Assembly: GCA_032718865.1 (NCBI GenBank)
Contig: JALUTQ010000022.1
Coordinates: 1 to 64,000 of the forward strand
DNA: 64,000 nt
From: Tilletia caries
Lineage: Eukaryota > Basidiomycota > Exobasidiomycetes > Tilletiales > Tilletiaceae
Reading direction: 5' to 3'
Part shown: positions 3,084 through 47,131 of the stretch, piece by piece
Layout: each line of letters begins with the position of its first letter
How positions within the stretch are numbered: the first letter of the stretch is position 1
The notes under the pieces: generated by a model
Databases searched by the model: none
What the model was told of the DNA's origin: nothing
The model's input: the letters and a program-made list of their open reading frames with translations, nothing else
Translations under genes and position numbers: made by a program

Positions 3084-4440
3084 GTGTGTCCGACCAAAGA
3101 ACGTCCTCTAGGCCTGGACGAGCAAGAATTGTTCGATATCGAGCTAAAGGACGGACAGGACGGGTGGAAGCATAGTGAGCCACCACGACGGACATCACCA
3201 GCACAGAGGACTGCCATCGAGGAGGCCTTACGAGAACACGACGAGCTCAACCTTTCGGAACCGGGCACGAGCCCACACAGCTCGGGAGTCGTCCTCGTTC
3301 CCCAAAGGGACAAACTCCGATTCTGCGTCGATTATCGTCCGCTAAACAGCGTAACGAAGGATGTCAGCTACTTCTCACCCAAGACAGACGAGATCTACGG
3401 ACTCCTCACCTCGGCGGTCTTCCTAACAATCGTCGACTGCAACAAAGGCTATCACCAGTTCGCCTGCACGGGAGAGGACCCGACAGCTCACCGCCTTCAT
3501 CACCATGTTCGGCACGAGGCTCTGGAACCGAATGCCTCGGACCGAAGACGGCACCCGCCTTCTTTCAGCGGGTGATCGATAACATTCTCGCAGCGTTCCG
3601 GTTCATCTGCGCCATCGCATATCTGGACGACATCCTGGTGTTTTTCTCCGACCTACGAGCAACATCTCGTCGACGTAAGGAGCGTCCTCTCAGCCCTGGG
3701 CGATGCCGGTATCACGATCGGCGCCAAAGAAGTGCGCCTTTGCGTTCACCAGCCTCAAGCTTTCTGGGGTACCGGGCTCACGCCCTGGGCATCATGGTGG
3801 ACGAGGAGAGAACAAGAGCGGTTCGAGAATTCCCAGTCTCGACCACAGCGAAGGAGGCGTTGCGATTCTATGCGATGGCCTCGTGGTATCGCAAGTCTCT
3901 GTGGAAAACTCGCAACGAGAGCAAAAAGCCCGTCAATCAAGCCATTCACTCAGAACCGTTCCGATGGTCGGAGAAGCAGCAACAAGCCTTTGACGACCTA
4001 AAGAGAGCATTGACGACTGCGCCAATTCTACGACGCCCCGACTACGCCAGACCCTTCATCCTGGACGTCGACGCGTCCGCCGCTGGATTCGGAGCCGCCC
4101 TCATTCAGCTGCAGGAGGACGGCAAGGAGCTATCCTGTCGTCTACATCTCTCGGAAAACCAGAGCAGAGACTCGATACGGCGCCGGATCTGGAGCTTCAG
4201 TGCGTCGTGTGGGCCGTGTGGGCCGTCTCAAAGTTGCCATTACATTGACGGATCGCATCTGACCGTCAGAAGTGACCATCAGGCGCTCAAGTACCTCTGG
4301 GACCTTAAGTCTGAAGCACCAACAGGACGACTCCAACGACTCGCTCTGCCCTGGCTCCGCTTCGGGACAAGATCAAGGTGGAGTACCGGAAGGGCTCGTT
4401 CAACAACGTCGCTGACGCCCTTTCCCGCAGCCCTCTACCA
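3084..4440 (+). pseudogene. TE-A reverse transcriptase and RNase H remnant
   Basis: RT fingers and palm start are readable at about 3230-3480 (SSGVVLVPQRD, LRFCVDYRPLNS, VDCNKGYHQF). After a frameshift, the catalytic YLDD is at 3620-3631. The connection reads FRWSEKQQQAFDDLKRAL near 3960, followed by RNase H FILDVDASAAGFGAAL near 4050-4100. After another frameshift, VTSDHQALKYL-like sequence and NNVADALSRSP close the domain near 4430. RNase H is thus continuous and lies before integrase, the normal arrangement. At least three frameshifts prevent translation. Confidence 0.8.
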
Positions 4441-4762
4441 GAACAAAGCACCGAACAACAAATCAAGTACCTCACCATCAAGCAAGTACAAAAACAAAAC
4501 ACGACATCAACAAGCATCATCCTCGACAAATCAGAACGACAATCGTGGGCAACGGCATACAACAACGACAAGACATACCGACGAATCTACAGCAAGCTGA
4601 AGAAGAAAAAAGAAAAAACGACAAAGAAAAAGAAGAAGAGGCCGAGGACGACCAACAAGAAGAACAAAGCGGCGGATGAACGCGATGGAAACGGGGAAAA
4701 CAATGGTGGAGAGGGTACACTTGGAGGAGATCTTCTGGCGGACAATGGTGGAGGAACGACGG

Positions 4763-5113
4763 GCACCGTGGTGGACTTGGGCTCTTTTTGTTGGAACGGA
4801 CACCGTGGTGGACATGGGCTCTTTGGTTGGAAAACATCGTTCGACGGACACCGTGGTGGACTTGGGCTCTTCGGTTGGGAAACATCGTTCGGCGTTCGAC
4901 AGCGGTGGAACGGGAACATCTGGAGGACATCAGCTGGCGGGTAATGGTGGAGGACCGGTGGACATTGTGGTGGACTCGGACTCTCTGGCGGGCGAACGAC
5001 GAAGGGACAAGAAGCACAAGACGGACATCGTGGAGGACAAGGGACCAAAGGTTAACGATCAGCAATCGGACATCGTGGAGGACAAGGGACCAAAGGTTGG
5101 CGGCCAGCAATCG
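4763..5113 (+). repeat. Minisatellite-like spacer between RNase H and integrase of TE-A
   Basis: Two sets of imperfect direct repeats. Three copies contain caccgtggtggac plus ttgggctctt and a ggttgg..aaacatcgttcg tail (near 4763, 4800 and 4850). Two copies of about 45 nt begin gacatcgtggaggacaaggg and end cagcaatcg (about 5023-5113). One frame would encode Gly/Asp-rich repeats; the region matches no retroviral domain. Confidence 0.7.
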
Positions 5114-6365: not shown

Positions 6366-6667
6366 TGTATATTGTTGTTACATTTCAGTTCTCTATGTCC
6401 CCGATCCGTTCCGCTCCGATCCCCGATCGCTCTCAACACTTTTCCTCACTCACTGCTCCAGAATCGTTACGCAACGTCTCACTTTTCCTTCCTCTTTTCC
6501 CTTCATCAGCCGCACCGGCTTCTCTCTCTCCTGCGCCTCATTTGTATATAAGCGGCTGCGCCCCACTTCCCCCTCTCGCTTAGAACTGATCCGTCATTGC
6601 ATATTCTCATTTGTTTAGCCTTAGCTACAGGTAAGACACTCTTCTACCGAACCATTGTGTTCGCACA
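6366..6667 (+). repeat. TE-B 5' LTR
   Basis: Near-identical to the 3' LTR from 6385 on; ends cgcaca directly before the primer-binding site. The start is taken at a TGT but is uncertain because the first bases do not match the 3' copy. TATA-like tatataa lies at 6545-6551. Confidence 0.8.
6545..6551 (+). promoter_or_regulatory. TATA-like box of TE-B 5' LTR
   Basis: The sequence tatataa in gtatataagcgg, about 120 bp before the LTR end. The same box occurs in the 3' LTR at 13360-13366. It is probably the core promoter for the genomic transcript. Confidence 0.5.
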
Positions 6668-7010: not shown

Positions 7011-8834
7011 ATGAGTTCCCAAGCCTCAAACAACTCTTCCGTCCGAGGACGGCGTGGACGACATGGCCGCGGTGGACAGGGCGGAGGACACGGCGGACAA
7101 GGATCGGCAGCTGCGCTTCCACCTCAACTTCACGTTTCGCCCGACACGATCCTCCCGCCCACACAACCCTCCGTTTCCGCCATCATGCACGAGTCCATCG
7201 TCGACGAAATACGGGCTATGCGGGACGAGTTGGCGTCAAGACTGGACGGGTTCAACGCGCGGCTTGGCGAGGTCGAGAAGTGGCAGCGGGCCACCGGCGA
7301 AGATGAGGAGGAGGACACTTCCGGACAACCCGAGCAAGAGGCCGGCACATCCACCCCCCTCCTCGACACGACAGGACAAGCTGGGTACCCGCCAACGACT
7401 CCTGCTTTCGTCACGCGCCGTTCAGATCGGATCCTCCCCCACCAGGTCCCACGGTCCTCGGACCCACAGTCATCGCCCATCCAGGCACATGCTCTTCGCT
7501 CCCAGCTCTTCACCACTCCGTCACCGTCGGGATCCACCCCGCTGGATCGCTTCAAGGCAATGACGACTCCAGAGCGGCGCAAGATCCGCCTGGCCATGAA
7601 GAAGCTCGGCATCCAGGTCCAGGAGTTTATGGGCGCTGCCGACGACAGCGGGTCTGTCACCTCCCAAGATGCTCACGACGGCAATCTTGCGGTGGATGGA
7701 GAAGACACGTCCAACGAGAGTCCCCTTCGACACGTCGTCCAGCCGGACACCCCTCCCGGTCCTGCCATCGCTCCCGCTCCCAACATACGTCCCGGACAGC
7801 CGCTCACATGCAAACAGGAGTTCCTCGGCAAGTACTCCGGCGATCCGACTCGCTTGGAGGCCTTCCTCAGTCGCGTCCGCGACGTGATCCGATCAGACAA
7901 CTCCGCGGCCTGGACCGCCGCTGTCATGCGTGCGTTGCCCATCGCTCTTACCGATGAGGCAGCCGTGTGGCACGAAGGCCTCCAGGACTCCACGGCAAGC
8001 TCTCTGACGTCCTTCGAGGCTTGGTCGACCACGATGAGGAAGGCTTTCCCCATCAATACTGCTCAACAACGCCGAGAAGCGTGTGAGCGTGTATGGACGC
8101 CGGCAACAGAGACTGCCCTGGCCTTCTACTTCCACAAAGTCCGGCAGCTTCGTCAAGCATTCGGCTTCGATCAACCCGACGAAGCCTTGGTGACCGACAT
8201 TGTCGATGCATTGCCCACCAGCTTCCAGACCATGCTACGACTTCCGCGTAATCAAGCTACGCTCGACGATCTCCAACACGAGCTCGGACGATGGGAGTTC
8301 TCCTGGCGCGACATGAATCGGATCTTCCTCCATACCGCCTCGTCCCCATCCACGCCGGCTCAGAGCTCGTCGTCGGCCATTGGTCGCTTCACTCAGCAAC
8401 AGACCATGGCGCGCTCGGTTTCCGCGCCGGTTCTCGCTGTCAAGAACCCCGTTCCAGTTCCGACAGCGGCAATCCCAGTCGCGGCTCCGCCTGCGACGAC
8501 CGCCATCTCAGCTATGGCTGCTGCCTACGATCCATCTCGTGTCATTCCGGCACGCAACGGTGAGCCTCGCAAGTACCGAGTCGAAGGTCGATCGGTCCCG
8601 ATGGTTCTCAACCGTCCTTGCGGGAAGTGCGGAGGAGACCACTTCAACTTCGAACACGCGCATCTCGTTCCTCAAGTCCGGACCCTCACCGTTGACGAGG
8701 ACGATGACTACCCGTTCGAGGACGAAGTGGTCGTAGGCACGTCAAGCTTTTACACGGCGGAACGTCAGGAGGAAGTAAAGGAGGAAAATCAGGGCACTCA
8801 GGAGTCCACATCCTCCTCCGTGAGTCGCGACTAA
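7011..8834 (+). CDS. TE-B Gag (607 aa)
   Basis: Starts at the first ATG after the leader (MSSQASNNSS). The N-terminus is low-complexity and Gly/Arg-rich. The capsid-like part spans about residues 260-440 (FLGKYSGDPTRLEAFLSRV, VWHEGLQD, RRKAFPI-like, LPTSFQTML), a layout seen in Ty3/Gypsy Gag. Near residues 540-550 lies CGKCGGDHFNFEH, a CX2CX3HX4H knuckle rather than the usual CX2CX4HX4C. The last eleven nucleotides plus stop lie inside an in-phase intron (8820-8902), so unspliced RNA gives Gag alone and spliced RNA reads on into protease-RT. Confidence 0.85.
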   Translation: MSSQASNNSSVRGRRGRHGRGGQGGGHGGQGSAAALPPQLHVSPDTILPPTQPSVSAIMHESIVDEIRAMRDELASRLDGFNARLGEVEKWQRATGEDEEEDTSGQPEQEAGTSTPLLDTTGQAGYPPTTPAFVTRRSDRILPHQVPRSSDPQSSPIQAHALRSQLFTTPSPSGSTPLDRFKAMTTPERRKIRLAMKKLGIQVQEFMGAADDSGSVTSQDAHDGNLAVDGEDTSNESPLRHVVQPDTPPGPAIAPAPNIRPGQPLTCKQEFLGKYSGDPTRLEAFLSRVRDVIRSDNSAAWTAAVMRALPIALTDEAAVWHEGLQDSTASSLTSFEAWSTTMRKAFPINTAQQRREACERVWTPATETALAFYFHKVRQLRQAFGFDQPDEALVTDIVDALPTSFQTMLRLPRNQATLDDLQHELGRWEFSWRDMNRIFLHTASSPSTPAQSSSSAIGRFTQQQTMARSVSAPVLAVKNPVPVPTAAIPVAAPPATTAISAMAAAYDPSRVIPARNGEPRKYRVEGRSVPMVLNRPCGKCGGDHFNFEHAHLVPQVRTLTVDEDDDYPFEDEVVVGTSSFYTAERQEEVKEENQGTQESTSSSVSRD

Positions 8835-8902: not shown

Positions 8903-11008
8903 ACTTCCACGGAGATTGGCCCAGCGCCCTCCATGTTCAATCAGACCACTACGCATCACGATGACTCCTTTGCTGCTGCGCCTCGTGCTACGAGTGAGAA
9001 TCAGTCCAACAACGCGTCCATACCGGCGTCAGTATCGGCAGGAACGTTGTTCTTGACGGATCGCCCCGTCTTCACCACACCGCGGACGATCCGTCCCAAC
9101 GAGGTCGTTCCTCCTCTGGCCCAGCCAAAGCGTGCGTTCGGGCAGGTGGTGGTACTTCCCAAGAATCCAACTACCGGCACGGGTCGAGGTTACCGGGCAC
9201 ACATTCCCTTGACCGCCCATATCCGCGTCAACGACACCGACGGTCGCGCCCTCTCAACCCTGTTGGATACAGGGGCGACGTTGTCCTGTATCGACGCTTC
9301 GGTCCTCAAGCGAATGGGCGGTTCTCCTTCTGGATCGCCCATGCATGTCAAAGGGATCGGCGACTCGATGACGCTCGGTTGGGCGACTCTTCCCGTGTTC
9401 CTTCACGCCACGGATCCTCAAGGCAAGCATGTGCACTTGGAGTTCGATCAAGACTTCCATGTCCTTCCGGAATTCCCCCCCGGTCTATGTCTTGGCCTCG
9501 ATTTCATCACTGCTTACGACGTATCGATCTCCCCGACTCGAGGCCGCGGCCGGATTGGTCGATACACGTTCCAAGTCCGCGAACGTGTTCCCAGTCCCTT
9601 CGCGACGGAGGCCGAACTTGTTTCTTCATCCTCCATCTCGTTGCCGCCCGGTTTCCAGACGTGGGTCTCGGTCAACGCGGCGTGTTTGGCCCCAGGGGTC
9701 GACTACACTGTCGCGCCCCGCCTCTCCATCACGCCTGACGAGTCCGTTCGATTGGCCGGTCCTGTCGGCCTCCTCCATCACGGGCCCGTCCGGCACATCC
9801 TGATCGGGAATTACGGATCGGCGGCATTTGAGTTGGAAAAGGGCACTGTGGTTGCCGATGCCACTGCCGCCCGGATAGGCGACCGCATCTCCGAGGGAGG
9901 CGAGCTGTTCCATCTCGGCATCCCATCCCAACCCAATCCTTTTACCGTCGCACCATCGGCCGTCCCTGACCCGGACGAGGCTGCCCTTCCGCTCGACGTT
10001 TTCGACGAGATCGACTCCCCCGTCAACTCGCTGACGCAGGACGCGGAAACCGCCCTTGTGGACGACGTATATCGGGTGGGGGTCGACGCCGATGGTAACG
10101 CTCATGCCGCTGTCATAGAGCTGTTGAGGGCCCACTCCGCCGCCTTCGCTTTGGATGGTTGCCCGGGGCAGATCGAGGGCCACGATATGGCCATTCACCT
10201 CGAGCCCAATACGAATCTGCCTCCGGAACCTCCTCGTCGGGCGAGTCCTGAAAAACGGGCGGCGATGGACGCTGCCATCGAGCAACTGCTGGAGTGGGAC
10301 GTGATCGAGCCCTCCCAGAGCCCGGTCTCTTTCCCCGTGGTAATGGTGAAGCAGAATGGCAAGTGGCGATTCTGTGTTGACTATCGCCAACTCAACTCAA
10401 ACACGATACCCGACCGCTATCCTCTTTCCACAATCGATGCCATCTTCCAAACCCTCTGTGGCAAGAAGTGGTTCAGCTCCTTGGACGCCATTCGTGGCTA
10501 TCATCAGCTCGGCGTTGTTCCGGAGGATCGATGGAAAACGGCGTTCGTTTGCCATCGGGGGCTGTATCAGTACAAACGAGTGCCATTCGGGTTAAGGAAC
10601 GCCCCGGCAGTCTTTCAGCGCATGATGGACAAGGTCCTCGGGAATCTTCGTTGGCAACAAGCCATAGTATACATTGACGACTCCGTCATTGCCACGGACG
10701 ATCTCGACGAACACCTTCGCGCCCTCGACACGCTCCTTCGGAACGCAGAGGAAGTCGGACTACGCTTCAGCCCGGCTAAATGCACGTTTGCAGTTCCGAG
10801 CCTCACCTTGCTCGGGAGGAAGGTGTCGGGTGCTGGTGTGGCCGTCTGGCAGGACCGCGCCAAAGCCGTTCAAACCTTGGCACGACCTCACACATTGCAA
10901 GAACTTTACCACGTTCTGGGCTTGTTTGGGTATTATCGCGCATTTATTCCCAGTTTTGCTGCGATCGCGGCGCCCCTCACGCGGTTACTAAAAAGGCTGG
11001 CGGTATGA
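8903..11008 (+). CDS. TE-B protease and reverse transcriptase
   Basis: The in-frame ATG at 8933 is probably not the real start; the frame is open from the intron acceptor at 8903. The protease DTGAT is at 9266-9280, with the typical LGLDFIT strand about 80 residues later. RT then shows FCVDYRQLN, LDAIRGYHQL, PFGLRNAPAVFQRMMD and the catalytic YIDD at 10670-10681, followed by the thumb and LGLFGYYRAFI. The frame ends at a stop at 11006-11008, just after an A5 run (10990-10994). Homologous TE-D reads TKGWRYE here, so one base is likely miscounted or mutated. Confidence 0.88.
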   Translation, partial: TSTEIGPAPSMFNQTTTHHDDSFAAAPRATSENQSNNASIPASVSAGTLFLTDRPVFTTPRTIRPNEVVPPLAQPKRAFGQVVVLPKNPTTGTGRGYRAHIPLTAHIRVNDTDGRALSTLLDTGATLSCIDASVLKRMGGSPSGSPMHVKGIGDSMTLGWATLPVFLHATDPQGKHVHLEFDQDFHVLPEFPPGLCLGLDFITAYDVSISPTRGRGRIGRYTFQVRERVPSPFATEAELVSSSSISLPPGFQTWVSVNAACLAPGVDYTVAPRLSITPDESVRLAGPVGLLHHGPVRHILIGNYGSAAFELEKGTVVADATAARIGDRISEGGELFHLGIPSQPNPFTVAPSAVPDPDEAALPLDVFDEIDSPVNSLTQDAETALVDDVYRVGVDADGNAHAAVIELLRAHSAAFALDGCPGQIEGHDMAIHLEPNTNLPPEPPRRASPEKRAAMDAAIEQLLEWDVIEPSQSPVSFPVVMVKQNGKWRFCVDYRQLNSNTIPDRYPLSTIDAIFQTLCGKKWFSSLDAIRGYHQLGVVPEDRWKTAFVCHRGLYQYKRVPFGLRNAPAVFQRMMDKVLGNLRWQQAIVYIDDSVIATDDLDEHLRALDTLLRNAEEVGLRFSPAKCTFAVPSLTLLGRKVSGAGVAVWQDRAKAVQTLARPHTLQELYHVLGLFGYYRAFIPSFAAIAAPLTRLLKRLAV

Positions 11009-12400
11009 ATCCGCTGATGGGAATACTCGGCTCGTCAACGCCGAAGGACGTGCCGTGTCCGCCGCTAAGGTTCCACTGTCCTGGGGATCGGAGCAGCAGA
11101 GTAGCTTCGAAGCTCTGCGGGCGGCCGTTGCGAACCCACCCGTGCTCGCCCATCCCGACCCGTCTCGACCGTACATTTTGTACACCGACGCGTCCAAAGG
11201 AGCTCTGGCTGCCATCCTCCATCAGGTCACGTCGTCGCCGGCCCCCGTCCCCATTGATCCGGTCGGGGCACATCTCAATACCTTGTCCGTACCTCAACTG
11301 CCCGCCGCCATCGCCCGAGATCGATGGACTTCCTGGTTGTACGAGGACAAGTTCTTTGCCCCGATCTTGCGGCAGGTTCAGGACCGGCCGACGCTCGACG
11401 ACGAATGGGTGGTCCGGGATAACGTCCTCGTCCGCCGCATTGATGACCGGATCGCTTTGCCTGCCTCGGGTCTGTCCGTCGTCTTGCGACATGCTCACGA
11501 CCATGGAGGACATTTCGGTTTCTGGAAAACCTTCCTTGCTGTCAACAAACATTTCTGGCGTCCCCAGCTGTCAACCGCCGTTCGTGCGTGGGTCAAGCAC
11601 TGTGAGCAGTGCCGCCGAACTAAGTCTTCGCCCAAGACTGGCTTCTTGGACATCTCACAGGACCCGACCTTACCATTCGACCATATCTCGCTTGATCTGA
11701 TTTATGGGTTCCCACGGTCGCGAGCGGGGAACGACGCGGCTTTGATCATCCAGGACCTCTTCTCGCGTATGGTGATCCTTGAGCCTTGCACCAAGGACAT
11801 CACCGCGGAGGGGGGGTGGCTGCCGTCGTGAGCAACCGTGTGCTCCGGTTCGGTTGGCGACCTCGTCGTCTCGTTTCGGATTCCGAAGCCCGGGTATCCG
11901 GGTCGGTCATGTCGGCTCTGTGCGAGTCGCTTGGTGCGGTCCGTACACCCTCCAGTCCCTATCACCAGCAAGCCAACAGTGTGGAGCGTGTGGTCCAGAC
12001 CATACACCGCGTCCTCCAAGTCATGGCTCTTCCGTCGAAGGCCCATTGGGATCGCCGCCTGCTGCCTTCGGTTGAATTGGCCCTCAACAGCAGTCCATCG
12101 TCGGTAACGGGACAGCGGCCGTTCGATCTCGTCTTCGTCAGCCACCCGACGGTGGTCCACGCCATCTTCGACGCAGAGGAGCACCTCGGCGTGGGCTCGT
12201 TCGACGAACGCCTGTCGGCGGCCCAGGATCGTCTGGCCGAAGCCCGTCAGCATATCGCTGCGGCTCGACTTGAACAGAAGCGTCGCTACGACTCACGTCG
12301 TACGACTCCGGCCCTAATCGTGCCAGGCATGTCTGCGTGGATTCGTCTTCGGGATCGGCCCGTCGTGGGCGCCGTCTCGACCAACTCGATGCGCGTAAAC
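11009..12400 (+). CDS. TE-B RNase H N-terminal part plus integrase
   Basis: After the frameshift, the tether SWGSEQQSSFEAL leads to YILYTDASKGALAAILHQV, the first RNase H strands, with the first catalytic Asp at 11187-11189. Instead of the remaining RNase H, the integrase follows. It has a His-His-Cys-Cys finger (HAHDHGGHFGF ... HCEQC, about 11490-11610), the first Asp in SLDLIYGF (about 11695), the second in VSDSEARV (about 11877) and the Glu in QQANSVERVVQ (about 11985). A second frameshift lies at a G7 run (11810-11816); the third is near 12390. The C-terminal part (GPFPVEEVLSAHRVRLALP) resembles the GPY/F region. Confidence 0.85.
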
Positions 12401-13185
12401 TCGGACCGTTCCCCGTTGAGGAAGTTCTGTCCGCTCATCGCGTTCGCCTCGCCCTTCCCCCTCACCTCGGCGTCGACCCGGTCTTCAGCATTGAACAGCT
12501 CGATCTTGAGTCGACAGACGACGATCCGTTTGCTGCTGATCGGACTACGGTCGTCCCGGATACGCGTGTGGCGGATGCGGAGGATGCGGCTCTCTCGTCG
12601 GACTCGTCTCTGATCCAGGAGGCTTCGTCTGCACCGGACTCGGTTGCGGATCCTGCTCCTGCTCTCCCGCCTCGCGTCCGACGTCACCCCGCTGCCCTCG
12701 ACGATTTCATCATGGGGACCGTCCAGTCGTCGACGCCGTCTGACGAGCTGAAGGACCTGATTCGCGGCCCGCTTCCTCGGCCTCGTGTGGTTCAGGACGG
12801 CCCTGATCGCATCCTTCTCACCGAGCGGCCCATAGCCTTTCTCTCCCGGCTCACAACGTCCGCTGAGTCCAAGCTCGTCGCGGCCGAGCTGGAGCTGGTC
12901 TGTTTCGCCTGGGCCTATAACAAGTTGGCCCATTTGCTCGAGGGTGCATTCACGACGGTTGTTACAGACCACTCGCCCATGGAACGCATGCTGCGCTCTC
13001 ATACAAATATCCCATACGGTCCTACAATTACGCGTTGCAGGACATCGATGATGCCCCATCTCGGAAATCTTCGATTCGTCTATCGACCAGGACCGCGCCA
13101 TACCAATGCCGATGCGCTTTCCCGCCTACCCATCGACCAGGGACGGTCGTCTTCTGCCGGTGGGGATGTGCTGGCGAGCAGCTAA
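12390..13185 (+). CDS. TE-B integrase tail and RNase H C-terminal part
   Basis: The frame starts in the integrase C-terminus (LDARKLGPFPVEEV) and continues through an acidic linker into an RNase H that lacks its first strands. It has RPIAFLSRL, then ELELVCFAW with the catalytic Glu at 12892-12894, VVTDHSPM with Asp at 12967-12969, and a closing TNADALSRL with Asp at 13111-13113. In other Gypsy elements all of this lies directly after the DAS strand and before integrase. The stop at 13183-13185 falls within the 3' LTR if that begins at the TGT after the polypurine tract (13167). Confidence 0.85.
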
Positions 13186-13482
13186 TAGTTACTTACTTCT
13201 CAGTTCTCTATGTCCCCAATCCGTTCCGCTCCGATCCCCGATCGCTCTCAACACTTTTCCTCACTCACTGCTCCAGAATCGTTACGCAACGTCTCACTTT
13301 TCCTTCCTCTTTTCCCTTCATCAGCCGCACCGGCTTCTCTCTCTCCTGCGCCTCATTTGTATATAAGCGGCTGCGCCCCACTTCCCCCTCTCGCTTAGAA
13401 CTGATCCGTCATTGCATATTCTCATTTGTTTAGCCTTAGCTACAGGTAAGACACTCTTCTACCGAACCATTGTGTTCGCACA
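13167..13482 (+). repeat. TE-B 3' LTR
   Basis: The polypurine tract cggtggggA directly precedes the TGTGCT start, exactly as in TE-D. From 13200 to 13482 the sequence repeats 6385-6667. The first about 33 bases differ from the 5' copy. It ends cgcaca. Confidence 0.8.
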
Positions 13483-23764: not shown

Positions 23765-25975
23765 TAGTGGATGGACATTGGCGAGTGGGTCTTGACGAGG
23801 CTGGCGCTCCTCATGCCGATATCTTTGCTCTGCTGCGTCGTCACGAGCAAGCGTTTGCTTTGGATGGTCGGCCTGGCCGTGTTGTGGGGCCAGAGATGGA
23901 GATCAAGCTGATTGACGATGCGGGCCTCCGGTCGGAGGCGCCGCGTAGAGCCAGCCCCGCCAAACGCCAAGCCATGGATGTTTCGATCGACCAGCTCCTT
24001 GCTTGGGATGTGATTGAACCGAGCGCCAGCCCGGTGTCTTTTCCTGTGTTGATGGTTCGACAGAACAACAAGTGGCGGATGTGTGTCGATTATCGGAACC
24101 TCAACGCGAATACCGTTCCGGATCGATATCCTCTGCCTCGGATCGATGCTGTTTTCAACACCCTCTCTGGGAAGCGCATCTTCTCCTCGCTGGATGCCAT
24201 CCGAGGGTACCATCAGCTTGGGGTCCGGGCGGAGGACCGCTGGAAAACCGCATTTGTGTGCCACAGGGGTCTTTACCAGTACAAGACTGTTCCCTTCGGC
24301 CTCCGCAATGCTCCTTCCGTGTTCCAACGCGTGATGGATCGCATCCTTGGGGATCTTCGTTGGCAGGACGCGGTTGTGTACATCGACGACGTTGTCGTGG
24401 CCTCGTACTCTATGGCCGAACACGTCGTTGCGCTGGACAAGCTGCTCGGTCGTGCCGCGGAGGTCGGCCTTCGTTTCAGTCCTGCTAAGTGCACGTTTGG
24501 GGTGCCTTCGCTGGTGTTGCTGGGGCGAAAGGTGTCCGGTGCTGGTTTGGCAGTGTGGAAGGAGCGGGCGTCCGCGGTGTCTGAGTTGCGTCGACCGACA
24601 ACCTTGCGTGAACTCTATCACGTACTTGGGCTGTTCGGTTATTACCGGCCTTTCGTCGATAACTTTGCTGCGATTGCTGAGCCGTTGACCTCGATCACCA
24701 AAGGCTGGCGATACGAGCACAGCGATGGTCGTTATCGTTTGGTGAATGCCGATGGCAAGCCGGCGTCGGCGGATCGTGTGGTACTCCCATGGAGTCTCGC
24801 GGCGCAACGCAGCTTCGACACGCTACGGTTGGCTATTGCAAACCCGCCTGTCCTTGCGCACCCTGATCCATTACGGCCGTTCATCCTCTACGTGGACGCC
24901 AGTAAACTCGCCTTTGCGGCGGTGCTGCACCAGGTCTTCGAGCATGATATCCCCGTTGCGTCTGTCACCGATGGTGTGGTAGCGAAGTTGGCTACGCATC
25001 AGGTCTCTCGTCTGCCTTCCCCTATCGCGCGAGAACGTTGGGTGGCTTGGCTTCGGCAGGATCGAATGTTTGCGTCGGTGTTGCGTCAGGTCGAGGCAGG
25101 AGAGGATGCCTCGTGGCTGTTGGATGATGGGTTGCTGGTCCGCCGTGTGGATGGACGTCTTGCGTTGCCGGAGGGTGCGCTGCCGGATCTGTTGCGGGCC
25201 GCCCATGACGACACTGGTCACTTCGGTTTCTCCAAGACGTTCTTGGCCTTGTCCAAGGATTTCTGGCGGCCCGGGTTGGCGACGGCTGTCAGAGCGTGGG
25301 TGAAGTATTGCCTCACGTGTCAACCGGTGAAGCTTCCGCGTCGCGTCGGGACGTTGCGCGTGGATAATGATCCTCAGGAGCCCTTCGAAGCGATCTCGAT
25401 TGACTTGGCTTTGGGGTTGCCGAGGGTCCGCAACGGGGTCGACGCAGTTCTGGTCATGTTGGACCTGTTCTCCCGTATGGTGCTGCTCGAGCCGTGCTCG
25501 TCGGACGTCACCGCTGAGGGTATTGCTGCCATCATTGCCGACCGTGTCCTGCGCATGGGTTGGCGACCGCGCCGTCTCGTGTCCGATTCTGAAGCTCGTA
25601 TGACTGGCGCGGTGATGCAGGAGCTCGCGCGGTCGTTGGGCGCAGTCGTTGTGGCCTCACCTCCTCACCATCAACAGGCGAATACGGTTGAACGGTTCAT
25701 CCAGACCGTACAGGTGACTCTTCGCGCGATGTGTCTGGAGTCGAAGCGCGCGTGGGATCGCCGCGCCGTTCCAGCGGTGGAGCTCGCTGTCAACAGCACT
25801 CCCAATGTGTCCACTGGTCTTCGTCCTTTCGACCTGGTCTTCATTAGCCACCCCAGTATCGTTCACGCCGTATTCGACGCGTTGGAGCACGAGGGAGTGG
25901 GCTCGTTCCAGGAGCGGTTGGCCGCGGCAGCGGAACGGCTTGTTGAGGCACGTGAGACGTTGGTTGCGGCGAGCA
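23765..25975 (+). CDS. TE-D reverse transcriptase, RNase H start and integrase
   Basis: RT shows MCVDYRNLN, LDAIRGYHQL, FGLRNAPSVFQRVMD and YIDD at 24379-24390. The thumb and tether lead to FILYVDASKLAFAAVLHQV with the first RNase H Asp at 24895-24897. Integrase follows at once: AHDDTGHFGF ... YCLTCQ finger (about 25200-25320), AISIDLALG (first Asp), VSDSEARMT (second Asp, about 25585), QQANTVERFIQ (Glu, about 25690). The frame breaks just before EQKRRYDTRRQ (about 25973). All catalytic residues needed for RT and integrase are present. Confidence 0.88.
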
Positions 25976-26582
25976 GAAGCGTCGGTATGATACTCGACGT
26001 CAGCCGCTCCCCGTTCTTGCGGTCGGGGACAAGGTGTTCGTTCGGCTCACGGATCGTCCGGTTGCAGGGGCGATCACGTCGAAGCTCGACATCCGAAAGC
26101 TGGGTCCTTTCCCCGTGGCAGAAGTCTTGTCGCCGCACCGCATCCGTCTCGCCTTGCCGCATCCTCTTCGCATCCACGATGTGTTCAGCGTGGAGCAGTT
26201 GGATGTCGTTCCGGCGGGGAATGATCCGTTTGCGGGCGCGCGCGTCGCTCCACCGTCGCTTCCGTCTCCTGTGGCTGCGCAAGAAGAAGAGGACGCGTCA
26301 GCGGAGTCGGCGTTGGCATCGGATGAGGTGGTGGAAGACTTACCATTGGTTCCCCGCCCATCGCGTGCTCCGCGGTTGCCCGTCGCTCTGCGCGAGTACG
26401 ATGTCGGTCTCTTCGCCGCCAGAGTCGATGAAGAGCTGCTGAGGAAGCCGTCAGCAAAGGCGCGATCGGTGATGGTCGACGGTCGGCAGATTGCCTTGCT
26501 CGAACATCCAGTGGCTTTCTTGTCGCGTTTGACGTCGGTGACCGAGAAGAAGCTGGTTGCTCCCGAGCTCGAGCTGTGTTGG
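25973..26582 (+). CDS. TE-D integrase tail and RNase H C-part, up to hAT-1
   Basis: Reads VGDKVFVRLTDRPVAGA, LGPFPVAEVLSPHRIRLALP (GPY/F-like), an acidic Ala/Glu/Pro linker, then HPVAFLSRLTSV and KKLVAPELEL with the RNase H catalytic Glu at 26571-26573. hAT-1 interrupts here. Without it the reading frame continues directly at 28632 (CCLAWAIGRLL). Confidence 0.85.
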
Positions 26583-26933
26583 CAGTGTTGAACATACTAT
26601 TGGAGTATGGAGTATTCCTATATACTATCGGGTCCCGGGAGATTTTTTTGGAAAACATACTATATACTATTTCAAAATCTGGCGGAGGTTATAGTATACT
26701 ATAGTACCAATTTTGGTCCGAGACCCCGAGCACGTCGTCTCAAAGTACTATAGTATATCTATAGTATACTATACTCCCTGCAAATTGTACTATACTCCTA
26801 CGATAGTACAAATTAGTACTATAGTATACATATACTCATCAGTATACTATACGTCTATACTACCTGCCAATTATACTATACTTCTACGATAGTACATGGT
26901 AGGACTATAGTATGCATATACTATTACTATAGT

Positions 26934-27713
26934 TAAGGTTGTCCCCGGAGTAACGCGGAGGGCTCCGCCTCCGCACTTCCAAATTCCGCCGGAATTTTGA
27001 CTTTCTGAGGCGAGCTCCGCCTCCGCAGACTAAGACAGAGCGGAAAAAAACCAGCTCCGCGTTCCGACGGAATTATACAAAAGTTGAAATCCCAGCTCCG
27101 CGCTCCGCGTTTTTTCTGTGCGTTTTCGTAATGCTCCTCCGTGCTCCGTGTATGCGGAGCTCGGAATTCCGTCGGAGCGCAGTGGTGGTATAAGTTGCTC
27201 TCAGAATGACTCTAATACACTCAGAGCTATACATTCACCATCCGACATTGTTGCGGTATTGACTCCAGTGCTATTTTGAAGCTCTCAACGGATGATGGTG
27301 CCTGTTTTATCCCCTGCGGGTGTCTCGAGGATGCCTATTTTTCTCGAAATTCCGCACTTTCCGCGGAAATTTTGCGGAATTCCAGCGGAGCGCACCCAAA
27401 ATGAGGTCACGTGACCCTTATTTTTCAACTATCACGTGACCTCATAGCTCCGTCGGAATTCCGCGGAAATTCCGCCGGAATTTTCACACAATTTTGACGA
27501 CTCCGCGCTCCGCACTTTTTGGCAAGTGGGCCCAGGATTGGGCTCCGCCTCCGCACAAATTCCGGCGGAGTCCTCCAAGCGGACTCCGTGCTTTTTTAAG
27601 ATCAAAAATTTCTCAAAAGTGAGCTCCGCGCTCCGCCTCCGGCGGAGCCCTCCGTCGGAGGAGTGCGGAGTCCGCAAAACCCCAGCTCCGCGTCAACTCC
27701 GGGGACAACCTTA
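26934..27713. mobile_element. hAT-2 copy a: MITE inside hAT-1
   Basis: 780 bp with ends TAAGGTTGTCCCCGGAGT in inverted orientation, flanked by perfect 8-bp duplications actatagt (26926-26933 and 27714-27721). About 95% or more alike to copy b at 42838-43631 by eye. Rich in ctccgc/gcggag and ggaattcc. GC-richer than the surrounding hAT-1. No protein is recognisable. By TIRs and 8-bp duplication a hAT-type MITE. Confidence 0.88.
27402..27444. repeat. Inverted repeat with two CACGTG cores in hAT-2a
   Basis: tgaggtcacgtga (27402-27414) and tcacgtgacctca (27432-27444) are exact reverse complements around a 17-nt loop; each arm carries its own cacgtg palindrome. Same structure in copy b near 43320-43360. 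Confidence 0.85.
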
Positions 27714-28631
27714 ACTATAGTACTACTATAGTATATCATTTTTGCCTGGATTGCGTTTGAGAAGGAAGTATTTAAGTATTACAATACTCAAGGCTCGGCA
27801 ACTATCTTCACTATGTAACTATGATAACTATATAGTTATAACTTATAGTGATAACTTGACTATACTTTGGGCGGCGAAGCCGCCTAGAAAAAATAGTAGC
27901 TATAACTTTTTCAGATCGGCGCGGGCCGCGGAGTAACTAATAGTTGAAATAGTTATGCAAAATCGCATTTGGCTGAGATAGCCACTACATAGTCACTATT
28001 TAGTAGCTCCAGCTACTCATAGTCACATATAGTCACTATCTCAGTTACTCATAGCCACATATAGTGACTATTTCACCCAAATGTGATTTTCTGTGTTGGA
28101 CAGGGGCTGTCTGACACAGCTGCTGGTTAGTTACTATGTAGTAGTTCCAGTCACTTATAGCCACATATAGTGACTATGTCGATATCACCTTGTGCTGAAC
28201 TAGTCACAGGTAGCTACTGGAAGTGACTATAGTGGCTATTTCAGCGAAAATCCAACGAAAATTTTGCATGGTTGAAATAGTAACTATTAGTTTTTATAGT
28301 AGCTATATCTCACTTGACTATACTATTTCCCGCCGACCACTCACTATAACTTGACTATACTATTTCGCAGAAAAGTGGTAACTCTAGTAGCTTGCCGAGC
28401 CTTGACAATACTACTATAGTATGATGGAAATTTTGCGCATACTATAGTAGTATTATCATAATACTATAGTACTACCCCTTTTTGGCCTTGGAGTATAGTA
28501 GTATTATAGGAAATACTACCATACCATCCTATCCTATATACTACCTTCGCCCTCCCGACGACCAAAGGTAGTATGGAGTATACTACCCGAGCCCCTGAAA
28601 ACAGTATACTATAGTATGTTGTTCAACACTG

Positions 28632-28903
28632 TGTGTTGCCTTGCGTGGGCGATCGGACGTCTCCTTCATTTGCTGGAAGGAGCGCCCGTGACGGTCGTGA
28701 CCGACCACCAATCGCTCGGCCCCATGTTGACGGCGGGGGAGTCGAATGAGTACGGACCGATGATCTCCAAGTGCCGGGCCATGATCATGCCTCACTTGCC
28801 AAACCTGCGGTTCGTGTACAAGCCCGGCCGCAAGCACAAGAATGCGGATGCACTCTCCCGCCTTATCGCTCCTGCGGACGACGACGACTTGGATGATCAA
28901 TGA
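28632..28903 (+). CDS. TE-D RNase H C-terminal end
   Basis: Continues the domain cut by hAT-1: AWAIGRLLHLLEGAPVTVV, Asp in TDHQ at 28703-28705, NLRFVYKPGRKHKNADALSR with the last catalytic Asp at 28847-28849, and a short acidic tail ending at 28901-28903. This is the extreme C-terminus of Pol, beyond integrase. Confidence 0.85.
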
Positions 28904-44524: not shown

Positions 44525-46404
44525 CTGTTGAATCTCGCGACTTTACTACCTTCGAGACAGAGCTCGGTCGTCTCAGGCACACCCGACTTCCTCAAGGCGG
44601 CACCAACTCATGTGTGGTCTTCCATTACATTGTAGTGGCGATCGTTGGTAGAGACGGAAAGGTGTATGTCGACGACACATTCATTCCCGGGCCAGATTCG
44701 ACGTACGACGACGAGCCCATTCCCGAGAACCCAAAGGTCCGTCGTTTCGTATACGAGTACCTGGTCAAACTCAACCGCGTTTTGTCCCGTGTCGGGAAAG
44801 CCAAAATGACGATCTCTGCTCGAAAGATGGCGCCGATACGACGAGCAGCCGAGGTTCTTGGGCAGGAGGTCAGTCCAGAAGGTCGTCGGGTCGCGAAGGG
44901 AAAGGTTGAGGCGATCGAGAAATGGAGCCGCTGCAGCACCGTTTCAGAAGTACGCAGTTTCCTCGGCATCGCAGGACAAGCACGCGCATGGATTCCAAAC
45001 TACTCGGCTGTTGTCAAACCTCTCACCAACTTGACTCGGAAGGGTGTCGTGTTCGACTGGGGGGAGGAGCAGCAGAAGGCGATGGACGCGGTCAAGCAAG
45101 TTATGGCCCAGCGAACACACCTGGTCGAGCTCAAGTATGGCGAGGATATGAAGCCGATCAAGCTTGGCGTCGACGCAGGGCCACTGGCTTGTGGCTTTTG
45201 GCTTGGACAGGACGACGAGGGAGGCGTGACGCATGTGGCGAGATACGGGTCGCTCCCCTTCAACGATCGCGAGCAGGCGTACTCCCAGGCCAAGCGCGAG
45301 TTATACGCCATCTTCCGTGCTCTGAAGTTCTTCAGGCACTGGTTGTGGGGTACTCGGGTCATTGTTTTCTCGGACGCCATGTTCATCAAGGGTATGCTTG
45401 CCAATCCGGAGCTTCCCAACTCGGCGATGACTCGATGGCTCGCGTATGTCATGCTGTTCGATCTGGCGGTGCAGCATGTCAAGGCCAAGGACAACGAGCT
45501 TGCTGACGGCCTGTCTCGTAGGCCGCCCCAGCCTGACGACGTTTCGGTCACCGATGATGAAGAATGGCTGACAGACCGTCTCGAAGACTTGCCCTCTGCT
45601 GGAGGATCAGATGAGACCCAGAACGTTGACCAGACCATCCTTGAACATTCTCACTCTTACTCCACTTCCTTCACTCCCGACCCCTCTCTTCTTCCTACCT
45701 CAGAGATAGAGCCGGTTGACCTGTTCTCCCTCCTGGTCGATGGTGGGAACGTTTCTTCCGTGTCGGCAGGTGTTGGAGTCGAGGGCTCCACGATTCGGAC
45801 ACTCTCGGATGAGCACCAAGGCGTTTTCGATTTCCTTGCCCTTGGCAAGAAGCCAGCGGGAGTCAACGACTTTGCTTCGAACAAACGCTTTCTGAAGAAG
45901 GCCTCGCAGTACTTTGTGGCAGGAAGGGCTCTGTGGAGACGTGGAGGAATCGAAGGAGCGGGCAGACTGGTTGTGGACGAAAAGGGGGAACAAGAGCGTT
46001 TGATGGGTTTGGCACACGAGGAGTCGGGTCACAAGGGTGTTCAGGCAACGGCACAGCAGCTGGAGAAGCGTTACTTCTGGACTTCGCTTTGGGCGGACGT
46101 GAGAAGCTGGATCGAGACTTGTGACGCTTGCCAGAAGCGAGAGCGGAGCAGCAGCGAGGCAATGATCCGACCCACAGCACCTCCAGACCCCTTCCAGCGC
46201 ATCGGACTCGACATCACCTACATGCCAAAGGCGCTCGGCAGACGATACCTTGTGGTGGTCCGCGACGATCTAAGCGGTTGGGTTGAGGCACGAGCTCTCA
46301 AAAGGAAGACGGCTAGAGCAGTAGCTCGTTTTTCTGGTCGAAGACGTCCTCACGCGCCATGGTCTCCCTCTCCAAGTGACCACGGACCAAGGCACGGAGT
46401 TTAA
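44490..46404 (+). CDS. TE-E RT palm, RNase H and integrase core
   Basis: RT goes on with RDFTTFETELG, TRLPQGGTNSC and KVYVDDTFI (catalytic YVDD near 44664). The thumb is followed by the RNase H tether (FDWGEEQQKAMDAV), KLGVDAGPLACGFWL, AKRELYAIFRALKFF, VIVFSDAMF and ELADGLSRR, complete and in the usual place. Integrase follows: HEESGHKGVQAT ... CDACQKRE finger (about 46017-46140), then RIGLDITYMPKA with the first Asp. The frame is lost at a T5 run (46329-46333). Confidence 0.85.
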
Positions 46405-47131
46405 GGGCGTTGTGGACGTGTTGCTCAACAAGTATAAGGTCGACATCACACGTACCAGCCCTTACAACCCTCGAGCCAATGGCGCGGTCGAACGAGGTCA
46501 TGGCCCTCTCAAAGAAACCATCATCCACATTGCCCGTTTGCTGGACGTTCCATGGCCTCAAGCAGTTGAATTGGCTTGCTGGATCGATCGGACAACGGTG
46601 CGACGACAATACGGCCATTCTCCGTTCTTCCTGCTCCACGGCCACGAACCACTGCTTCCCCTCGACCTCGCTGGACCACTTTTAATCGAGAAATACCAGT
46701 CCATTCTCGACGATAAGGCAGCGCTGGCGGCGACAGTTGCGGATCGAATCAACAGGCTTGCCTCTCATCAGCTGGTCGTTAATCTCGCTCGAAAGGCAAA
46801 GACGGATGCACGAGCAATTTCTTCCGCCCATCGAAACCTTCAGGAATCCCTTGTCGAGCCCAACTTCTCGCCCGGTCAGCTCGTCCTCATTCGCAACCTC
46901 AAGGCGATCGAGATTAAGAAGTCAGAGATCAAGCTCCAGGACACTTGGCATGGTCCTTACAAGGTTGTCTGGCAAGGCATCAACGGAGGAGTACACCTCT
47001 CGACACTCGAAGGCATCGCACTCCCCTCTGCATTTCACCCGACGCATGTCAAGAGGTACCGCCCGCGCATCAAAGCCCTGCTGCAGCGAGACCCGGCCAC
47101 CACCACCAAGGATGTCGTTGAGAAACCCTAG
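46334..47131 (+). CDS. TE-E integrase C-terminal half
   Basis: Continues the integrase: VTTDQGTEF with the second Asp (about 46380), NPRANGAVERGHGPLK with the Glu (about 46475), then HSPFFLLHGHEPLLP, and a C-terminal SH3-like stretch (FSPGQLVLIRNLK, DTWHGPYKVVWQG, HPTHVKRYRP). Ends at a stop at 47129-47131, just before the polypurine tract. No chromodomain seen. Confidence 0.85.
   Translation: MVEDVLTRHGLPLQVTTDQGTEFKGVVDVLLNKYKVDITRTSPYNPRANGAVERGHGPLKETIIHIARLLDVPWPQAVELACWIDRTTVRRQYGHSPFFLLHGHEPLLPLDLAGPLLIEKYQSILDDKAALAATVADRINRLASHQLVVNLARKAKTDARAISSAHRNLQESLVEPNFSPGQLVLIRNLKAIEIKKSEIKLQDTWHGPYKVVWQGINGGVHLSTLEGIALPSAFHPTHVKRYRPRIKALLQRDPATTTKDVVEKP

What the first reader, a model, noticed from the sequence alone, without database searches (positions are those of the whole stretch)
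11160..13185. RNase H split by the integrase in TE-B
Seen: the first RNase H strands with the first catalytic Asp (TDAS, 11187-11189) directly follow RT. The sequence then goes into the integrase finger and DDE core. The remaining RNase H motifs (RPIAFLSR, Glu 12892-12894, TDH Asp 12967-12969, NADALSR Asp 13111-13113) come only after the integrase C-terminus, at the end of Pol. Known: Ty3/Gypsy Pol is PR-RT-RNaseH-INT with a contiguous RNase H. Inference: integrase sits in the loop between RNase H strands two and three. The enzyme would have to assemble from two distant segments of Pol, or from two cleavage products inside the particle. I know of no described element with this plan, but I could not search.
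Basis: partly seen in the sequence, partly recalled or inferred. Interest (0 to 1): 0.93.

Follow-up and report, generated by a model that had tools for sequence, protein, structure and literature searches.

The report
Integrase nested inside retrotransposon RNase H
In a family of fungal jumping genes, the enzyme that destroys the RNA template is encoded in two pieces with the whole DNA-inserting enzyme lodged between them, a rearrangement shared by elements of several smut-related fungi, while other elements in the same genome keep the ordinary order.

The parts
6378..6667 (+). 5' LTR of TE-B (boundaries approximate)
   Evidence: 290-nt direct repeat, 99% identical to 13193-13482; local alignment
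7011..8834 (+). Gag-like ORF, 607 aa
   Evidence: ORF; weak Retrotrans_gag match, E 0.031, below cut-off
8933..11008 (+). Pol piece 1: protease and reverse transcriptase
   Evidence: ORF; Asp_protease_2 residues 103-144 (E 3.2e-4, under cut-off), RVT_1 residues 473-628 (E 6.8e-32)
11079..11237 (+). RNase H N-half (strands beta1-beta2, first catalytic Asp at 11187-11189)
   Evidence: RH profile 2-54, E 2e-14; PF17919 1-52
11481..12166 (+). Integrase zinc finger and DDE core, between the RNase H halves (a frame change lies inside in this copy)
   Evidence: INT profile 6-117 at 11481-11810 and 118-235 at 11813-12166; PF17921 E 4e-16
12370..12501 (+). Integrase C-terminal SH3-like domain
   Evidence: PF24626 SH3_Tf2-1, residues 12-55 of the 12337 ORF, E 1.1e-5, below cut-off; above cut-off in 4 of the 9 relatives scanned
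12820..13119 (+). RNase H C-half (beta3 to the end; Glu 12892-12894, Asp 12967-12969, Asp 13111-13113)
   Evidence: RH profile 56-150, E 3.7e-18; PF17917 30-90, E 3e-12
13193..13482 (+). 3' LTR of TE-B; its repeat starts 8 bases past the end of the pol stop codon (13183-13185)

Best explanation
TE-B belongs to a lineage of Ty3/Gypsy-type LTR retrotransposons, branching among chromovirus-like elements, in which the Pol order is PR - RT - RNase H(beta1-beta2) - integrase (zinc finger, DDE core, SH3, in some members a chromodomain) - RNase H(beta3 to end). The integrase module is nested in the beta2-beta3 hairpin turn of a single RNase H. The two halves fold together into one ordinary RNase H docked on the RT. 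The N-half supplies the first catalytic Asp and the C-half the Glu and the other two Asp, so neither half holds a whole active site. The plan arose once, by moving the RNase H C-half behind the integrase or, equivalently, the integrase into the hairpin, and was inherited in Ustilaginomycotina. Shown here: the domain order, conservation, selection, one branch in RT trees, and predicted co-folding. Inferred: that RNase H is active, that the halves assemble in the same Pol molecule before any protease cut, that after a cut the product would be a nicked RNase H holding RT and integrase together, and the vertical inheritance.
Against: No biochemistry. AF2 may rejoin the halves because it knows contiguous RNase H folds; pTM is only 0.54 and 0.46, and the fourth Asp of L034 lies at the edge of a low-confidence tail. 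The aligner gives only first and last residues of a match. dN/dS rests on 7 of 190 pairs (6 for RH-C, with median dS 0.82). RH-only trees support the grouping weakly (85 for RH-C, 67 for both halves, P0179 loosely placed). 13 of 148 proteins with split-type order lack one half; I did not check them one by one. TE-B itself has a broken Pol frame. 177 of the 297 hits were not listed and not examined.
Confidence: 0.9

Rival explanations
1. Two elements joined by assembly error or nested insertion, or a unique decayed copy.
For: The window is TE-rich, and TE-B's pol changes frame several times.
Against: 20 of 20 long natural open frames fetched from the genome and 135 of 228 database proteins, from several genera, have the same order; 41 sampled split elements form one branch.
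Confidence: 0.01
2. The C-terminal piece is a second RNase H captured later (as the archaeal-type RNase H of plant and oomycete elements), and the N-terminal piece is a degenerate remnant like the retroviral tether.
For: Dual RNase H lineages exist (passages of PMC5348765 and PMC9040795).
Against: The two matches are complementary: N-half matches stop near 53, C-half matches start near 56, with at most a small overlap. The first Asp in the N-half is kept in 84 of 85 rows with one gap, and the N-half has low dN/dS. The RH-C tree keeps the split rows together and shows no second source, though with few columns.
Confidence: 0.03
3. The element's own RNase H is dead and host RNase H does the work; the halves are structural.
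For: No activity data exist.
Against: All four catalytic acidic residues are conserved across the aligned lineage, and dN/dS of RH-C is close to that of the integrase core.
Confidence: 0.05

Closest known systems
Ty3/Gypsy chromoviruses (Metaviridae; e.g. contiguous relatives P0141, P0180, P0183)
   Same: LTRs, Gag, PR, RT, RNase H and INT of Ty3 type; RT trees place the lineage among contiguous elements of which several carry a chromodomain; some split members carry a chromodomain too (PF00385 listed for P0126, P0127, P0130, P0174).
   Different: In those relatives RNase H is contiguous and precedes integrase; here integrase lies inside RNase H and Pol ends with the RNase H C-half.
Gmr1-like Gypsy elements and Ty1/Copia (recalled: integrase before RT)
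   Same: Shows that Pol domain order can change.
   Different: There whole domains are permuted; no domain is split (recalled).
Dual RNase H elements (Tat, Chronos, Odin, retroviruses; passages of PMC5348765 and PMC9040795)
   Same: Unusual RNase H arrangement in Ty3-type elements.
   Different: They carry two RNase H domains; here there is one, in two parts.
P element and related transposases with insertion domains (passages of PMC7776569)
   Same: An RNase H-like catalytic core interrupted by a whole domain.
   Different: There the insert lies between beta5 and alpha4 of a transposase core; here an integrase lies between beta2 and beta3 of a true RNase H. PMC3985635 (passages) says insertions between the first three strands are relatively rare outside RNases H2 and H3.

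Membership tests
Ty3/Gypsy (Metaviridae) LTR retrotransposon | Flanking LTRs, Gag-like ORF, PR, RT, RNase H, INT | tested here: met
   (Gag and PR matches weak, under cut-off)
Ty3/Gypsy (Metaviridae) LTR retrotransposon | RT groups with Ty3/Gypsy-type RTs | tested here: met
   RT trees of homologues found by search; best structural match Ty3 RT. No Copia RT was in the trees.
Ty3/Gypsy (Metaviridae) LTR retrotransposon | Pol order PR-RT-RNase H-INT with contiguous RNase H | tested here: not met
   Hence filed as a derived lineage with its own order, not as a standard member.
Chromovirus | Chromodomain C-terminal to integrase | tested here: inconclusive
   PF00385 listed for P0126, P0127, P0130, P0174, weak in P0110; not found in TE-B
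Ty1/Copia or Gmr1-like order | Integrase before RT | tested here: not met
   Integrase follows RT in TE-B and in the relatives scanned
Dual RNase H elements | Two RNase H domains in Pol | tested here: not met
   The two matches are complementary parts of one profile

The most novel reading that the evidence does not exclude
The element's protease cuts Pol on both sides of the integrase module, giving RT with RNase H beta1-beta2 and integrase with RNase H beta3-end. RNase H is then active only as an RT-integrase complex, a built-in lock that ties template destruction, and so cDNA completion, to the presence of full-length integrase.
Probability: 0.3. Interest if true: 0.93.

Novelty: new variant of a known kind. 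Interest (0 to 1): 0.87.

Why it matters
The order of Pol domains is used to classify LTR retroelements, and RNase H is treated as one contiguous block after RT. A lineage found in two classes of a fungal subphylum, with integrase inside RNase H, shows that this block can be opened and kept, gives a natural split RNase H, and ties RT and integrase together by fold or at least by translation. It makes the question of how RT and integrase cooperate in the particle testable by comparing two sister lineages. Annotation by domain hits may report such elements as having a truncated RNase H or a wrong order.

Tried and rejected
Considered and rejected: an intron or splice event in TE-B (cannot reorder domains, and other copies are open); a second RNase H; a chimeric assembly. 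Paper searches: (no hits) listed no paper that describes this plan by title or abstract start; five were opened and searched by term, none read whole; the library holds open-access papers only. LTR edges and polypurine tract of TE-B: I saw by eye no clear purine tract before the 3' LTR and no clear TG..CA ends; left open. A sequence search of the PDB with the C-terminal piece alone found nothing at E 0.01. Rfam found nothing in the window. Counts: P0137's C-half match starts at position 44; it was called full and C-half after I moved the rule by one position, and its N-half match is weak (E 4e-4). Rows dropped: one search used 16 of the Tilletia proteins, left out proteins lacking a half, and left out P0174 because its RT stretch is short; one search dropped 11 named rows and P0110, rows under 60% filled, and had no window or locus rows; one search used the 41 split and 25 of the 77 contiguous rows. 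One search took 98 of the 151 RT matches, those near full length, and 82 of the 150 PF17919 matches, those that could lie beside them.

Full report
WHAT WAS CHECKED. TE-B is an LTR element with 290-nt repeats at 6378-6667 and 13193-13482, 99% identical (alignment). Reading all frames gives Gag-like 7011-8834, PR-RT 8933-11008, a piece with the first RNase H strands and the integrase finger 11055-11831, integrase core 11786-12613, and a last piece 12337-13185. Pfam on the pieces finds RT_RNaseH_2 positions 1-52 and RT_RNaseH 1-27 in the RNase H/integrase-finger piece, and positions 55-98 and 30-90 of the same two profiles in the last piece, with Integrase_H2C2 between; the weaker match of each pair is under its cut-off. 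A profile built here from contiguous elements gives 2-54 and 56-150. In the same window two other elements, at 3959-4372 and 45052-45513, match that profile in one stretch before their integrase (the first to position 135). A second member of the split family (24790-28855) has the same cut, with its C-half broken by about 2 kb of other DNA.

NOT AN ARTEFACT. The window's own genome (38.1 Mb, 40 contigs) has 149 matches to the C-terminal piece and 151 to the RT; both counts are lower bounds. Twenty loci were fetched, picked from the C-terminal matches for their long open frames. In all 20 the longest natural open frame (1079-1626 aa) holds an RT motif, RNase H N-half, integrase and RNase H C-half without a stop; in L049 and L050 the C-half match is cut short. 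Pfam on nine of these frames agrees, nine of nine, with the short C-half of L049 among them. Since these loci were picked by the C-terminal piece, a check without that pick was made. All PF17919 and PF17917 matches of the genome that the tool scored (150 each, capped) were listed, and 98 near-complete RT matches were paired with the PF17919 match next to them. Of 71 RTs at 55% identity or more to TE-B, 50 are followed by an N-half only, 0 by a full domain and 21 by no listed match. Of 27 RTs at 43% or less, 24 are followed by a full domain, 2 by none listed, and 1 by a match to position 62 only, whose remainder (PF17917 28-92) overlaps it directly in another frame, so it is contiguous but broken. 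In one search, 69 of 150 PF17917 matches begin at 27-30 and cover the C-half alone; most of the other 81 span the domain. Six loci with more distant RT were fetched too: L051-L055 (RT 36-43% identical) have a contiguous RNase H after RT, five of five, and L056 (55%) has the C-half after integrase.

HOW WIDE. Three database searches gave 297, 65 and 82 hits; only 120 of the first 297 were listed, and 228 different proteins could be mapped. With the two profiles: 135 have N-half, integrase, C-half; 10 N-half and integrase only; 3 integrase and C-half only; 76 have a full RNase H (73 of them as one match before integrase); four are single cases (CI, NCI, F, I). Over 134 split proteins N-half matches end at 51-69 (median 53), C-half matches start at 44-59 (median 56), and 448-646 residues lie between. 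The cut is thus the turn between strands beta2 and beta3. Some contiguous relatives have small insertions at this turn: P0185, P0186, P0188, P0190 and P0192 carry 4-6 residues, and P0184 about 24, so the site tolerates additions. Named hosts of split members are Tilletia (laevis, controversa, caries, indica, walkeri), Jaminaea pallidilutea, Parajaminaea phylloscopi, Pseudozyma flocculosa, Ustilago trichophora, Ustilago sp. and Melanopsichium pennsylvanicum. The window's host is most likely a Tilletia of the wheat-bunt group: L034 is 100% identical over 76% of the query stretch to a T. laevis protein; this is inference.

ONE ORIGIN. In an RT tree of 118 rows, 41 split and 77 contiguous, the split rows lie on one side of one branch (SH-aLRT 96). 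A careful tree of 66 rows gives 96/96 for that branch. Contiguous rows near it include chromodomain-bearing elements, but which is closest is unsure. Trees of the short RNase H parts agree weakly (85 for the C-half, 67 for both halves, P0179 loosely placed). The Tilletia, Ustilaginales and Jaminaea-type members group largely by host, which suggests long vertical inheritance; this is inference.

STILL WORKING. In an alignment of 85 members the N-half Asp is present in 84 (one gap), the C-half Glu in 85, the Asp of TDH in 85 and the last Asp in 81 (four gaps); the integrase DDE is 85, 85 and 83. Among 20 own-genome frames, 7 of 190 pairs had usable RT divergence. Median dN/dS was 0.032 for RT, 0.092 for the N-half, 0.040 for integrase, 0.050 for the C-half (6 pairs) and 0.16-0.17 for the linkers; the short tail after the C-half gave 0.55 in one pair. 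Both halves thus look kept by selection, on few pairs.

MECHANISM. The simplest reading is a domain-in-domain Pol: the chain leaves RNase H at the beta2-beta3 turn, builds integrase (and in some a chromodomain), and returns to finish RNase H. RNase H can only form once the integrase has been translated. If the element's protease cuts around the integrase, the result is a nicked RNase H that keeps RT and integrase together; if it does not cut, Pol works as one RT-RNase H-integrase protein. I could not tell these apart.

LITERATURE. Ten searches listed no paper describing this plan; most subscription papers are not held. Passages found by term search in five papers: PMC3248453 (fungal LTR elements), PMC5348765 and PMC9040795 (extra RNase H domains), PMC7776569 (P element RNase H interrupted by a GTP-binding domain between beta5 and alpha4) and PMC3985635 (insertions among the first three strands are relatively rare, with helices between beta2 and beta3 typical of RNases H2 and H3). 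Gmr1-like and Copia orders are recalled.

Noticed in passing
window 24790-28855: A second member of the split family: N-half 24790-24939 and integrase 25186-25869 in a 977-aa open frame; its C-half is interrupted by about 2 kb of other DNA.
   Followed up: partly
window 4759-5113: Imperfect 48-nt repeats between RNase H and integrase of the neighbouring element TE-A.
   Followed up: no
window 45052-46675: Another Ty3-type element with contiguous RNase H before integrase, a control in the same window.
   Followed up: partly
L001 (G000:C4:10526-14371): A copy 100% identical to TE-B over the RT and C-terminal stretches searched; it has one open frame across the point inside integrase where TE-B changes frame.
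   Followed up: no
P0110 (Jaminaea pallidilutea): One predicted gene of 2176 aa joins a split pol and the start of a second pol in tandem.
   Followed up: no
window 13119-13193: The RNase H C-half match ends about 60 bases before the stop codon and the 3' LTR repeat follows within 8 bases, with no clear polypurine tract seen by eye.
   Followed up: no
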